NCBI GenBank assembly: GCA_028284265.1
Contig: JANQRZ010000019.1
Location: 248,001-312,000 of the forward strand
Direction: 5' to 3'
DNA length: 64,000 bases
Source: Rhodothermales bacterium
Lineage (GTDB): Bacteria; Bacteroidota; Rhodothermia; Rhodothermales; JANQRZ01
Under the pieces are notes generated by a model. It was not told the DNA's origin and did not search any database. It saw nothing but the letters and a program-made list of their open reading frames with translations. A program made the position numbers and the translations under genes. Below, piece by piece: positions 50,492 to 54,720 of this stretch; positions within the stretch are counted from its first letter, which is position 1; the number at the start of each line of letters is the position of its first letter.

Positions 50492-52288
50492 ATGGCAACC
50501 ACCCAGACCTCCGCAGGCGGCGACGGCCAAGCCGACAGCCTCGAAACCTACATCGCCCATTATCCCGAGTGGGCCAAGACGCTCGCACGGCGCTACTTCA
50601 CGAAGACGATCAACCAGTTCGTCCTCCACGGCAACGTCCGCGACCTCGTCCCGACTGAGGACGGCGATGAGCAAGCGTTCGTCCCGCTCCGCGAGTTCCT
50701 CTCGCGCGACCTCTTCGCCGGACGCGACATCGTGATTTTCTACGACCGCTCCTCCGGCATCCACTTCGGCGACAAAGCCAGCCAGACTGACTTCAACCGG
50801 GCGCTCTCGGGCTACGACACCATCTTTGGGACCGAGTACGCGAAGAAGTTGCCCAAGGACCCGGTCCGCGTATTCTCCGTCCTCGACAACTACTTCCGCC
50901 TCCGCATCGCCGACGGCAAGCGGATCGCCTGCATCGTCGACTACGCCGAAACCATCGTCCCAATGGCCGAGGCCGCGAGCTACTCGTCCGAGGACCGCAA
51001 CGCGCTCGTCTTCCTCCAGCGCTGGAGCCACGACCCGCACCTCCTCAAGGCCGACTTCACCCTCGTCCTCGTCGCCGAGAACCTGAACGACCTCAACCGG
51101 CAACTCGTCCAGAGTCCGTACACCGAGGAGATTCAGATCGACATCCCCGACGAGACGGGGCGCAAGGGATTCGTGCAGTGGATGCTGCGCGACGGGCGCG
51201 GAGCGACGTTCAAAAAGCGGAGCGAGGTCAGCCAGACCGCCCTCGCCTCGAACACCGCCGGGCTGGGCTTCGTCCAGCTTCGGACGATCCTCGCGGACGT
51301 GCTCGAAAACAGCCGCCGCCTCACCTTCGAGCGGCTGACCGAGCGCAAGAAGGAACTGATCGAGGCCGAAGCCTACGGCCTACTGGAGTTCGTCCACACC
51401 GACTTTACCCTTGACCTCGTCGCCGGGCACGACGAGGCGAAGGCCCACCTCCGCGACGCCGCCCGCGCCATCCGTCAGGGGCGGCACGACGTGATGCCGA
51501 TGGGCTACCTCATCGCCGGGCCGGTCGGGACAGGCAAAACGTTCCTGATCACCTGCTTCTCGGGCGAGATCGGGATTCCGATGGTCAAGCTCAAGAACTT
51601 CCGCAGCCAGTGGCAGGGCGTCACCGAGGGCAACCTCGAAAAGATCCTCAACCTGCTCCGCGCGATGAACCCGGTCGCGGTCATGATCGACGAAGCCGAC
51701 GCCGCGCTCGGCGACCGCAACTCGTCGGGCGATAGCGGTGTCTCGTCCCGCGTCTTCGGGCAGATCGCCCAAGCGATGAGCGACACCCGCTTCCGGGGCA
51801 AGATCATCTGGTTCCTCGTGACCGCCCGCCCGGACCTCATGCCGGTGGACCTCAAGCGGCAGGGCCGTGCCGAAGAGCACATCGCGCTGTTCTACCCCTC
51901 GACCCGCGAGTCCCGCGAGGAACTGCTGGAGGTCATGATGAAGCGCACGGGCGTCTCCCTCTCGATGGACGACGTGCCACACACCCTCCTCAACGGCGAG
52001 CGCACCCTCAGTGGAGCCGACATGGAGGCGCTGTTCACCCGTGCCAAGTTCCGCGCCGCCGCCGAAACCGACGGACGCAAGAAAGCCGAGGTCACATCAG
52101 CCATCGTACAGGACGTGGTGGACGACTTCATCCCGCCGACGTACCCGCTTCAGGTCGAGCTTCAGGCCCTCGTCGCCGTGCTCGAATGCACGAGCCGGGC
52201 CATGCTGCCGGAGCGCTACCGGGAGCTAGAGCGCGAGCAGATCGTCCGCCGCGTCGAGGAACTCAAAGCCCTCGTCGGGGACGGATAG
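50492..52288 (+). CDS. AAA+ ATPase with degenerate N-terminal AAA-like half (Ycf46-like layout)
   Basis: A 598-residue cytosolic protein. The C-terminal half is a complete AAA module: Walker A GPVGTGKT (about 344-351), Walker B VMIDEADAAL (about 397-406), sensor region IIWFLVTARPDLMPVDLKRQGRAEE with Arg. The N-terminal 270 residues have an AAA-like order of strands (DIVIFYDRSSG, FTLVLVAENLNDLNRQL, EEIQIDIPDETGRKGFV) but no Walker A, i.e. an inactive first ring as in Ycf46. No ftsH-type protease or membrane segment. The role is unknown; protein remodelling is inferred. The gene ends at a strong bidirectional terminator. Confidence 0.85.
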   Translation: MATTQTSAGGDGQADSLETYIAHYPEWAKTLARRYFTKTINQFVLHGNVRDLVPTEDGDEQAFVPLREFLSRDLFAGRDIVIFYDRSSGIHFGDKASQTDFNRALSGYDTIFGTEYAKKLPKDPVRVFSVLDNYFRLRIADGKRIACIVDYAETIVPMAEAASYSSEDRNALVFLQRWSHDPHLLKADFTLVLVAENLNDLNRQLVQSPYTEEIQIDIPDETGRKGFVQWMLRDGRGATFKKRSEVSQTALASNTAGLGFVQLRTILADVLENSRRLTFERLTERKKELIEAEAYGLLEFVHTDFTLDLVAGHDEAKAHLRDAARAIRQGRHDVMPMGYLIAGPVGTGKTFLITCFSGEIGIPMVKLKNFRSQWQGVTEGNLEKILNLLRAMNPVAVMIDEADAALGDRNSSGDSGVSSRVFGQIAQAMSDTRFRGKIIWFLVTARPDLMPVDLKRQGRAEEHIALFYPSTRESREELLEVMMKRTGVSLSMDDVPHTLLNGERTLSGADMEALFTRAKFRAAAETDGRKKAEVTSAIVQDVVDDFIPPTYPLQVELQALVAVLECTSRAMLPERYRELEREQIVRRVEELKALVGDG

Positions 52289-52364: not shown

Positions 52365-52559
52365 CTATTTCTTCTTCTTGTCGCGCAGCGTGATCAGGGT
52401 TTTGTAGAGATCGTAGGAGATCAATACGGCATAGGGGTCGTTGTTCTTCTGGATCAGAATACCGCTCTTCATTTTCTTCGCCTGCTCGACCAACCCGGAC
52501 GTGTCCGAGCGGAGTTCGGTGATGGTGGCTACGGCTTCGATGCCTTCGGTGCTGTACAT
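52365..52559 (-). CDS. Phd/YefM-family antitoxin-like protein, no toxin alongside
   Basis: The start at 52559 (MYSTEGIEAVATITELRSDT) gives 64 residues; an upstream ATG at 52592 adds 11 unalignable residues. ATITELRSDTSGLVEQAKK and PYAVLISYDLYKTL follow the Phd/YefM pattern of an N-terminal dimerisation/DNA-binding domain. The toxin-neutralising C-terminus is reduced to a run of Lys. No ParE/RelE/Doc-type gene is adjacent on either side, so it is an orphan antitoxin or a stand-alone repressor. Confidence 0.82.
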   Translation of the reverse strand: MYSTEGIEAVATITELRSDTSGLVEQAKKMKSGILIQKNNDPYAVLISYDLYKTLITLRDKKKK

Positions 52560-52599
52560 GTTGAGGTCAGGATTAGGTGGGAGGTCAAGCAACGCATTC

Positions 52600-52832: not shown

Positions 52833-53138
52833 ATGTTCCTATGCCGCGTGACAGGCACAGTCGTATCCACACAAAAAAGCGACCGATTCCGTACAGCCAA
52901 ATTGCTCATCGTTCATCGGGTCGATACGCAGGGTGATCTCGTCGGCTCGAACGAACTCCTCGCCCTCGACCCGAACTACGATGCCGGTGTGGGCGACGTG
53001 GTGCTCGTAGCGAAGGAGGGAGCCGTCGTCGCGCAACTGATGGGCGATGACGAGGCACCGGGCGGCGTACCGGCCAACGTCATCATCATCGGCGTGGTCG
53101 ATGACTGGTCCGTTATCGACGGCGACGGCACCGCGTGA
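52833..53138 (+). CDS. EutN/CcmL-family microcompartment vertex protein homologue
   Basis: The start at 52833 (MFLCRVTGTVVSTQKSDRF) aligns with the family start; an ATG at 52785 would add 16 residues. The protein is 101 residues. The pentameric shell pattern is clear: [CV]-RVTGTVV-x-T near the start, TAKLLIVHRVDTQGDLVGSN, ALDPNYDAGVGDVVLVAKEG and VPANVIIIGVVDDW at the end. In microcompartments such proteins cap the vertices. No hexameric BMC shell gene or encapsulated enzyme cluster is in the window; lipoamide dehydrogenase is next. Confidence 0.88.
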   Translation: MFLCRVTGTVVSTQKSDRFRTAKLLIVHRVDTQGDLVGSNELLALDPNYDAGVGDVVLVAKEGAVVAQLMGDDEAPGGVPANVIIIGVVDDWSVIDGDGTA

Positions 53139-53268: not shown

Positions 53269-54720
53269 ATGGCTACCCCCTCCTACGACATCGTCGTCAT
53301 CGGCTCCGGGCCCGGCGGTTACGAGACCGCGATCCGCGCCACCCAACTCGGCTTCAAGACCGCCATCATCGAGAAGAACAAACTCGGCGGCGTCTGCCTG
53401 AACATCGGCTGCATCCCGACCAAGGCACTGCTCAAGAGCGCCGAGGTGATGGCCCAGATGAACCACCTCGGCGACTACGGCCTGAGCTTCGGCGGCGACG
53501 GTGCCCCGGCCATCGAGCCGGACTTCGCGGCCGTCGTCAAGCGCTCGCGCGGGGTGGCGGACAAGATGAACAAGGGCGTCGGCTTCCTGATGAAGAAGAA
53601 CAAGATCGACGTTATCATGGGCAAGGCCACGCTCCAGGGCGGCGGCAAGATCGCCATCGAGCCGAGCGAGACGATGGACGGCGAAAAGGTCGGTGAGAAG
53701 GGCGAGGTCACAGCCAAGCATATCATCGTCGCCACGGGTGCCCGCGCCCGTGAGATTCCGCCGCTGCCGGTCGATGGCAAGAAGGTGGTCGACTACAAGC
53801 AGGCGATGCTCCAGACCGAGAAACCTGGCTCGCTCCTCGTCGTCGGTGCGGGCGCGATTGGCGTCGAGTTCGCCTACGTCTACCACCACATGGGCACCGA
53901 GGTCACGATCGTCGAGGTGCAGGACCGGCTCGTGCCCGTTGAGGACAAGGACGTGTCGAAGGAACTGGAGCGCGCCTACAAGAAGATGGGCGTGACCGTG
54001 ATGACCGGCGTGCAGCTCAAGGAGGTCAACACGAAGGGCAAGAAGGTCAAGGCCACCATCACGACGAAGAAGGGCGACGAGACGCTGGAGTTCGACCAGG
54101 TCCTCTCCGCCGTCGGCGTCGTCGGCAACGTCGAAGGCATTGGGCTGGAGGAGGTCGGCGTGAAGGTCGAGCGCGGGGCGATCCAGGTGGACGAGTATTT
54201 CCGCACGGGCGTCGACGGCATCTACGCCATCGGCGACGTGATCGGCGCGCCGTGGCTCGCGCACGTCGCCAGCCACGAGGGCATCACCTGCGTCGAGAAG
54301 ATCGCGCAGGACGAGGGCAACACCGAGGTCCACCCCCACCCCATCGACTACAACAACGTCCCCGGCTGCACCTACTGCCAGCCCCAGATCGGCTCGGTGG
54401 GCTACACCGAGGACGCGGCGAAGGAAGCGGGCTACGAGGTGAAGGTCGGCAAATTCCCGTTCACTGCCTCCGGCAAGGCCGCCGCGATTGGCGACACGAC
54501 GGGCTTCGTGAAGGTGGTCTACGACGCCAAGTACGGCGAGTGGCTCGGCTGCCACATCATCGGCCACGAGGCGACCGAGATGATCGCGGAGGCCGTGACC
54601 GCCCGGACGCTGGAGACGACAGCGCACGAGGTGATGGCCGCGATGCACCCGCACCCGACGCTCTCGGAGGCTGTGATGGAAGCGACGAGGGCTGCCTACG
54701 GGATGCCGATCAACATCTAG
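53269..54720 (+). CDS. lpdA: Dihydrolipoyl dehydrogenase (E3)
   Basis: A 483-residue flavoprotein disulfide reductase. The FAD loop VIGSGPGGYETAIRA is at about residues 10-24; the redox pair is C43-x4-C48 (CLNIGC); the NAD loop is VVGAGAIGVEFAYVY; the second FAD motif is GIYAIGDV; the catalytic dyad is in HPHPTLSE. It reoxidises lipoamide of pyruvate, 2-oxoglutarate or branched-chain dehydrogenases and the glycine cleavage system. No E1/E2 genes are adjacent. Confidence 0.97.
   Translation: MATPSYDIVVIGSGPGGYETAIRATQLGFKTAIIEKNKLGGVCLNIGCIPTKALLKSAEVMAQMNHLGDYGLSFGGDGAPAIEPDFAAVVKRSRGVADKMNKGVGFLMKKNKIDVIMGKATLQGGGKIAIEPSETMDGEKVGEKGEVTAKHIIVATGARAREIPPLPVDGKKVVDYKQAMLQTEKPGSLLVVGAGAIGVEFAYVYHHMGTEVTIVEVQDRLVPVEDKDVSKELERAYKKMGVTVMTGVQLKEVNTKGKKVKATITTKKGDETLEFDQVLSAVGVVGNVEGIGLEEVGVKVERGAIQVDEYFRTGVDGIYAIGDVIGAPWLAHVASHEGITCVEKIAQDEGNTEVHPHPIDYNNVPGCTYCQPQIGSVGYTEDAAKEAGYEVKVGKFPFTASGKAAAIGDTTGFVKVVYDAKYGEWLGCHIIGHEATEMIAEAVTARTLETTAHEVMAAMHPHPTLSEAVMEATRAAYGMPINI

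What the first reader, a model, noticed from the sequence alone, without database searches (positions are those of the whole stretch)
52833..53138. Lone EutN/CcmL shell-vertex protein without a microcompartment cluster
A clear pentameric shell-protein homologue sits between an orphan antitoxin and lipoamide dehydrogenase, with no BMC hexamer gene within the window (at least 10 kb on each side). Either a satellite shell gene serves a distant compartment, or the fold has been reused for something else.
Basis: partly seen in the sequence, partly recalled or inferred. Interest (0 to 1): 0.55.

Follow-up and report, generated by a model that had tools for sequence, protein, structure and literature searches.

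The report
Vertex protein of a scattered microcompartment
The lone shell-vertex gene is one piece of a bacterial microcompartment whose shell and enzyme genes are scattered around the genome, and two tagged enzymes found elsewhere suggest that this poorly understood kind of compartment breaks down the sugar of DNA.

Summary
In detail: window 52833-53138 (+) is a genuine EutN/CcmL pentamer gene, and no hexamer gene lies in the window. It is probably neither spare nor reused. The genome holds two tandem BMC-H genes and a tandem BMC-P pair at two other places, and no main locus. Of 114 genomes of the order, 52 have BMC-P (45 with exactly three) and 49 of these also have BMC-H (46 with exactly two). 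This matches the published FRAG microcompartments, which have no assigned function. The lone gene usually follows a core AAA ATPase gene; relatives without the compartment often keep that place empty, one with a decayed relic. Following co-distribution I found two likely cargo enzymes elsewhere in the genome: an acetylating acetaldehyde dehydrogenase with an encapsulation-type C-terminal tail, and a DeoC deoxyribose-phosphate aldolase with an N-terminal extension that compartment-less relatives lack or have in weak or different form. Ignavibacteria carry comparable extensions; deoB lies near the BMC-P pair in both groups. I propose a dispersed deoxyribose-5-phosphate metabolosome without PduL or BMC-T. 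Encapsulation and activity are inferred, not shown. The kind is known; I found no earlier cargo assignment.

The parts
52833..53138 (+). Lone BMC-P (EutN/CcmL) vertex protein gene, third member of the genome's BMC-P set
   Evidence: PF03319 60.7 bits; orthologue alignment; fold match to CcmL/GrpN/EutN
50492..52288 (+). Context, not part of the compartment: core AAA ATPase gene that marks the site of the lone BMC-P gene
   Evidence: in 19 of 21 lone-BMC-P loci (cluster C2; order, for G015 by the places); strong match in 108 of 114 genomes (recount)
52365..52592 (-). Context: Phd/YefM-like antitoxin-type gene between the ATPase gene and BMC-P
   Evidence: PF02604 34.1 bits; same family at this site in 9 of 21 lone-BMC-P loci and also in compartment-less G034, G037, G020
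53269..54720 (+). Context: dihydrolipoamide dehydrogenase-like gene, downstream neighbour in 7 of 21 lone-BMC-P loci only
   Evidence: PF07992/PF02852; cluster C26
45401..46474 (+). Context: class I fructose-bisphosphate aldolase, core neighbour; not read as cargo
   Evidence: NF006707 632.7 bits; also near the ATPase gene in compartment-less genomes

Best explanation
The gene encodes one of three pentameric vertex proteins of a fragmented (FRAG-type) metabolosome. Shown from sequence: the shell set (2 BMC-H, 3 BMC-P, no BMC-T found) lies at three places of this genome and is present or absent together across the order. Shown from sequence: a EutE-like acetylating aldehyde dehydrogenase with a conserved C-terminal amphipathic tail is co-distributed with the shell, and DeoC carries an N-terminal helix-linker extension in nearly all compartment-bearing genomes examined, while those without have none or a weak or different one. 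Inferred: the shell encloses both enzymes; [quoted passage not shown] The window protein closes shell corners.
For: Genome-wide shell set. Co-distribution in 114 genomes: BMC-P and BMC-H 49 both, 3 P only, 0 H only, 62 neither; BMC-P and the dehydrogenase 48/4/1/61. On a tree of the neighbouring ATPase (50 of the 114 genomes) presence needs 7 changes, at least 4 forced by well-supported branches. Dehydrogenase: best NCBIfam acetaldehyde dehydrogenase (acetylating) TIGR02518, 546.5 bits (below its 620.1 cut-off); closest solved chain 5j78, acetaldehyde dehydrogenase (acetylating); the tail pattern occurs in 32 of 114 genomes, once each, within the dehydrogenase gene (places), reversed control 0. 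DeoC: 269.6 bits to TIGR00126 (cut-off 117.3); an HMM of the extension built from 12 sequences of two families scores 34 of 35 held-out compartment-bearing genomes at 28 bits or more and 30 of 30 compartment-less ones at 7.5 or less; the one exception, G013, has only a truncated BMC-P and neither BMC-H nor the dehydrogenase. Model of DeoC: helix 3-16, helix 23-35, low-confidence 40-50, then the barrel mostly above pLDDT 90. Of 24 genomes of dehydrogenase-bearing records, most titled Ignavibacteria or Melioribacter(aceae), 23 have a full DeoC of 288-297 aa, all with such an extension. deoB lies at most 200 nt upstream of the BMC-P pair on the same strand in 25 of 43 genomes that have both, and 0.5-5 kb upstream in 14 more; the order deoB, BMC-P, BMC-P, sigma factor recurs in two Ignavibacteria, L304 and L320.
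Against: No PduL (PF06130) in any of 114 genomes, so the usual CoA-recycling core enzyme is missing. No BMC-T was found in this genome. Fixed-window hydrophobic moment of the DeoC N-terminus was not raised (Rhodothermales 1905 of 2000 shuffles reached it, Ignavibacteria 1995 of 2000); only a second form, run afterwards, was (3 and 0 of 1000). Neither enzyme gene is linked to shell genes in this genome. DeoC is in 111 of 114 genomes and deoB over its cut-off in 61 of 114, compartment-less ones included, so neither is compartment-specific. G012 and G016, without compartment, have some N-terminal extension, and family f12 genomes have extensions of other sequence. 5 of 48 pair-bearing genomes gave no deoB hit beyond weak ones, in 3 it is on another contig and in 1 it is 6.7 kb away; the 25 closest cases are all one family. 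Many genomes are related, so counts overstate independence. Nothing experimental.
Confidence: 0.72

Rival explanations
1. The compartment is real and the dehydrogenase is its cargo, but DeoC is not; the DeoC extension is a structural element and the true aldehyde source is an enzyme not found here.
For: FRAG compartments are described as lacking an obvious signature enzyme. Fixed-window amphipathicity test negative for DeoC. DeoC is nearly universal in the order, and some compartment-less genomes have other N-terminal extensions. The dehydrogenase's inner-helix pattern was matched in no other gene, so DeoC does not share it.
Against: The extension model separates compartment-bearing from compartment-less genomes 34/35 against 0/30 at 28 bits; an extension recurs in another class with an encapsulation-like sequence (the likeness is recalled), is modelled as terminal helix plus linker, and DeoC makes the aldehyde that the dehydrogenase's best family is named for.
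Confidence: 0.2
2. The lone pentamer has left the shell and works with the adjacent AAA ATPase as a separate machine.
For: The two genes lie together in 19 of 21 loci, overlapping or a few bases apart in some; this BMC-P scores lowest of the three (60.7 bits against 86.7 and 92.4).
Against: The ATPase has a strong match in 108 of 114 genomes, most of those without any BMC-P included (recount); in G019 the two genes are far apart; the BMC-P is absent where the hexamers are absent in all but 3 genomes.
Confidence: 0.06
3. A spare or decaying shell gene without function.
For: A decayed relic is seen at this site in compartment-less G014.
Against: Aligned full length in 16 orthologues of several families, and present with the other shell genes in nearly all genomes that have them; decay was seen where the rest of the set is gone.
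Confidence: 0.05

Closest known systems
FRAG microcompartments (Sutter et al. 2021, PMC8217296)
   Same: BMC-P triplet, shell genes at several places, mostly remote from enzymes, reported in Ignavibacteriae and closely related phyla; a few with nearby aldehyde dehydrogenases (section 8 read)
   Different: That section names no signature enzyme; here DeoC, fed by DeoB, is proposed. The main text holds no word beginning with Rhodotherm. The FRAG subtype could not be assigned (supplements not available).
SPU (sugar-phosphate-utilising) microcompartments
   Same: DeoC-type aldolase plus aldehyde dehydrogenase, proposed breakdown of DNA sugar (PMC8217296 section 8; passages of PMC4207490, and of PMC8156839)
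   Different: SPU genes form loci with RpiB and, in most first examples, PduL; here no locus, no PduL, no BMC-T hit in this genome; RpiB not tested
HO microcompartment of Haliangium ochraceum
   Same: BMC-P triplet; the pair members match the HO pentamer 5v74 best among solved chains; some HO genomes have a distant pfam01791 enzyme with an encapsulation-like N-terminal extension
   Different: HO has a main locus and BMC-T; not found here
CcmL / EutN / GrpN pentamers
   Same: Fold and full-length family match
   Different: Best NCBIfam hit is CcmL at 46.7 bits, far under its 125 cut-off; so not assigned to any of these equivalogs

Membership tests
EutN/CcmL pentamer (PF03319) | Full-length match above the curated cut-off | tested here: met
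   60.7 bits, 1-83 of 83
EutN/CcmL pentamer (PF03319) | Pentameric assembly, interface residues | not testable with these tools
   Only a monomer model was made; conserved columns listed, interface not mapped
FRAG microcompartment | Shell genes at several places without a main locus | tested here: met
   three places on two contigs
FRAG microcompartment | Three BMC-P paralogues | tested here: met
   3 in this genome; exactly 3 in 45 of the 52 genomes with any
FRAG microcompartment | The three BMC-P drawn from the published clades of the triplet | tested here: inconclusive
   No tree with the published clades; pair closest to 5v74, lone one, by profile, to CcmL 4n8x
FRAG microcompartment | Shell-specific HMM subtype assignment (FRAG1-7) | not testable with these tools
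   Supplementary HMMs not held
SPU microcompartment | DeoC-type pfam01791 aldolase with the shell | tested here: inconclusive
   DeoC with co-distributed extension but not in the shell loci
SPU microcompartment | Enzyme genes clustered with shell genes in one locus | tested here: not met
   shell, dehydrogenase and DeoC genes lie on different contigs or far apart
SPU microcompartment | RpiB (pfam02502) | not tested
Canonical metabolosome core | Aldehyde dehydrogenase with encapsulation peptide (15-20 residue amphipathic helix plus linker; definition from a passage of PMC8217296) | tested here: met
   By sequence only: tails; terminal moment 0 of 2000 shuffles. Encapsulation itself untested
Canonical metabolosome core | PduL phosphotransacylase | tested here: not met
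   0 of 114 genomes
Canonical metabolosome core | Alcohol dehydrogenase for cofactor recycling | not tested
   no search made

The most novel reading that the evidence does not exclude
The scattered FRAG compartments of Rhodothermales and Ignavibacteria are one ancient organelle for 2-deoxyribose-5-phosphate breakdown whose shell and cargo genes have each settled beside housekeeping genes (AAA ATPase, deoB and diadenylate cyclase, YbbR/CdaR-like, efp-accB-accC), so that it would be run as a standing housekeeping detoxifier of acetaldehyde from DNA turnover rather than as an inducible catabolic operon, and acetyl-CoA leaves it without PduL.
Probability: 0.4. Interest if true: 0.75.

Novelty: new variant of a known kind. 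Interest (0 to 1): 0.6.

Why it matters
FRAG microcompartments were published as a class in many phyla without an assigned function, in part because their genes are not clustered. If DeoC and the tailed aldehyde dehydrogenase are their cargo in this lineage, the class gains a testable pathway, and the cargo tails give a way to find compartment enzymes without relying on gene clusters.

Tried and rejected
AAA ATPase as a BMC partner: rejected; 113 of 114 genomes have a match at E 1e-3, and 108 a strong one (five have only weak matches to other AAA proteins, recount). Class I fructose-bisphosphate aldolase in the window as cargo: it matches a class I aldolase equivalog over its full length and stays near the ATPase in compartment-less genomes. 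PduL as marker: none. Finding the pathway from genes next to the dehydrogenase: neighbours look like efp, accB, accC, gcvH, guaA in three genomes (names recalled from sequence) and other core genes in Ignavibacteria, so no enzyme cluster; only L304 and L320 of 80 loci had shell genes (BMC-P) within the fetched stretch, which is short on many contigs, and none had BMC-H. A shared tail motif in further proteins: the exact inner-helix pattern was found in no other gene. Amphipathicity, fixed window: DeoC negative in both groups (1905 and 1995 of 2000 shuffles reach the value), dehydrogenase end positive (0 of 2000 in both groups), its inner helix negative (1972 of 2000), linker control negative (1843 of 2000). 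The window-maximum form was run after seeing that result: DeoC 3 and 0 of 1000, dehydrogenase end 0 and 0, inner helix 58; so it is weaker evidence.

Rows dropped: of 89 genomes whose DeoC stretch was fetched or held, 12 gave no sequence under my motif and are not among the 77 scored (11 without compartment, and G025, near its contig end); of the 77, 47 are BMC-P-bearing and 30 not. 4 BMC-P-bearing genomes (G090, G093, G096, G099) were not examined: no, weak or split DeoC hits. The moment sets used 32 and 23 DeoC and 28, 26 and 52 dehydrogenase sequences, those that my patterns caught. The ATPase tree used 50 of 114 genomes. Of 15 ATPase stretches of compartment-less genomes, two (G107, G010) gave no gene calls. 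Two lone-BMC-P loci (G015, G019) had no shell gene in my gene calls although one search finds it, and L105 is missing. The alignment of the lone protein used 17 of the 21 loci.

Full report
What is there. Window 52833-53138 (+) encodes a 101-residue EutN/CcmL protein (PF03319, 60.7 bits over the full profile; translation). Orthologues agree on the start MFLCRVTG. A model built on 17 sequences (mean pLDDT 78.3) matches solved CcmL, GrpN and EutN pentamers. The window lies at G000:C16:248001-312000 of a 3.7 Mb, 24-contig genome.

The rest of the shell. The genome has two BMC domain genes in tandem on another contig (C14:293961-294468; 102.1 and 88.8 bits) and a tandem BMC-P pair 118 kb away on the same contig (C16:419262-419873). 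Genes around them look like ordinary core genes: glycosyltransferases, a flippase-like and a YbbR-like gene by the BMC-H pair; phosphopentomutase (deoB, 441.8 bits to TIGR01696), a protein-isoaspartate-methyltransferase-like and a diadenylate-cyclase-like gene by the BMC-P pair (the labels other than deoB are recalled from sequence appearance). The two PF00936 hits lie in separate genes, so no tandem-domain BMC-T was found.

A conserved scattered system. Among 114 genomes of the order, 52 have PF03319 (45 with exactly three hits) and 49 have PF00936 (46 with exactly two). 49 genomes have both, 3 have BMC-P alone and 62 neither. The places are conserved to a fair degree: of 21 fetched lone-BMC-P loci 19 hold the AAA ATPase gene, the pair often lies near deoB (below), and a YbbR-like gene lies by the BMC-H pair in 17 genomes. 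This fits the FRAG type of Sutter et al. 2021 (PMC8217296; section 8 read, passages): up to six places, BMC-P triplet, no known signature enzyme, reported in Ignavibacteriae and closely related phyla.

The site of the lone gene. The ATPase gene has a strong match in 108 of 114 genomes (recount), so it is a core gene and not a dedicated partner; in G019 it is far from the BMC-P gene. Of 15 ATPase stretches of compartment-less genomes, 13 gave gene calls; in 9 of these (G034, G037, G030, G001, G014, G012, G020, G031, G066) the ATPase gene is followed by an amidohydrolase gene, as in several compartment-bearing genomes, with no BMC-P and sometimes with the Phd-like gene between; in 4 (G112, G074, G016, G055) other genes follow. 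In G014, of the same genus as compartment-bearing G015, a decayed BMC-P lies between ATPase and amidohydrolase genes (17.5 bits, E 0.0016; frames), and its deoC is split over two open frames (an assembly error is not excluded). In G053 a methyltransferase-like gene follows deoB after 22 bases, where others have the BMC-P pair. A tree of the ATPase from 50 genomes needs 7 changes of compartment presence, at least 4 forced by well-supported branches. Loss of an ancestral set is the simplest reading; the tree does not by itself tell losses from gains.

Cargo 1. Of five PF00171 matches in this genome one, at C7:72787-74403, resembles EutE-type enzymes and has a long C-terminal tail; in relatives the tail has a conserved inner helix and a conserved last helix. 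It is closest to acetylating acetaldehyde dehydrogenases (546.5 bits to TIGR02518, under its cut-off of 620.1). At E 1e-40 it has a match in 49 of 114 genomes; one, G020, is only 39% identical and that genome lacks a compartment. BMC-P and this gene: 48 both, 4 BMC-P only, 1 gene only, 61 neither. The last helix is more amphipathic than shuffles (0 of 2000). The inner-helix pattern occurs in 32 of 114 genomes, once each and inside this gene, and never in the reversed control.

Cargo 2. DeoC (TIGR00126) is in 111 of 114 genomes. Its N-terminus differs: in 32 compartment-bearing genomes where my start pattern fits, 46-82 residues (median 69) precede the first catalytic-domain motif; in the compartment-less genus g4 and family f10 it is about 9-37 by the first possible start, while G012, G016 and three f12 genomes show 48-65. 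An HMM of the extension from 12 sequences of two families gives 28 bits or more to 34 of 35 BMC-P-bearing genomes of other families and at most 7.5 bits to 30 of 30 compartment-less ones. The exception, G013, seems to have lost the compartment (one truncated BMC-P, no BMC-H, no dehydrogenase). The weak extensions of G012 and G016 may be remnants; those of family f12 are of other sequence. The model of this genome's DeoC shows a terminal helix (3-16), a second helix (23-35), a low-confidence stretch (40-50) and then the barrel. Amphipathicity of the first helix was negative in a fixed window (1905 of 2000 shuffles reached it; Ignavibacteria 1995 of 2000) and positive when the best window was taken (3 and 0 of 1000).

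Other groups. Of 24 of those genomes, most titled Ignavibacteria or Melioribacter(aceae), 23 have a full DeoC, all with an N-terminal extension that resembles known encapsulation peptides (the resemblance is recalled), and most of the dehydrogenase tails printed end in a common helix of the type E-I-x-K-I-I-x-x-F. Shell genes were found within the fetched stretch of only 2 of 80 loci (L304, L320), and there the order is deoB, BMC-P, BMC-P, sigma factor, as in Rhodothermales. In the order, deoB lies at most 200 nt upstream on the same strand of the pair in 25 of 43 genomes having both, all of one family, 0.5-5 kb upstream in 14 more, 6.7 kb in 1 and on another contig in 3; 5 of 48 pair-bearing genomes showed no deoB beyond weak hits. 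deoB is over its cut-off in 61 of 114 genomes, compartment-less ones included.

Reading. [quoted passage not shown] SPU compartments are proposed to do the same). The shell would hold the acetaldehyde. Against the canonical core, PduL was found in 0 of 114 genomes, so CoA must be handled otherwise. Why there are three kinds of pentamer is open. That DeoC and the dehydrogenase are inside the shell is inferred.

Novelty. Nine paper searches (open-licence library, listings seen, long lists only in part) showed none that by title or abstract start assigns DeoC to FRAG compartments or describes microcompartments in Rhodothermales. The five papers holding both 'microcompartment' and 'Rhodotherm' were checked by passages: four have the first word only in their reference lists and one is about encapsulins. 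PMC8217296 was read in section 8 and passages, PMC4207490 and PMC8156839 in passages only. A paper on candidate division LCP-89 with microcompartments, seen cited, is not held. Subscription papers, preprints and supplements were not available.

Noticed in passing
window 50492-52288: A 598-aa AAA ATPase with a long N-terminal half outside the Pfam AAA match, with a strong match in 108 of 114 genomes of the order (recount) and under the cut-off of every NCBIfam model it hits: apparently an uncharacterised core protein.
   Followed up: partly
window 52365-52592: The 'orphan antitoxin' (Phd/YefM-like) is a neighbour of the ATPase gene in several families, with or without compartment, which is unusual for a mobile toxin-antitoxin gene; my gene calls show no further gene between the ATPase and BMC-P genes.
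   Followed up: partly
L006:10223-10717: The second BMC-H has a C-terminal extension of about 80 residues beyond the BMC domain; the second BMC-H is long (open frames mostly about 140-225 aa) across the order.
   Followed up: no
L202:4690-5000: Decayed BMC-P relic at the lone-gene site of a compartment-less genome whose deoC is also interrupted.
   Followed up: partly
L212, L214, L211: The tailed dehydrogenase gene sits directly upstream of genes that look like efp-accB-accC (labels recalled), whose products use acetyl-CoA in part, in three genomes of different families.
   Followed up: no
L007:9886-10290: A 4HBT thioesterase gene lies just upstream of the BMC-P pair in this genome and some relatives; a role in releasing CoA is possible but untested.
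   Followed up: no
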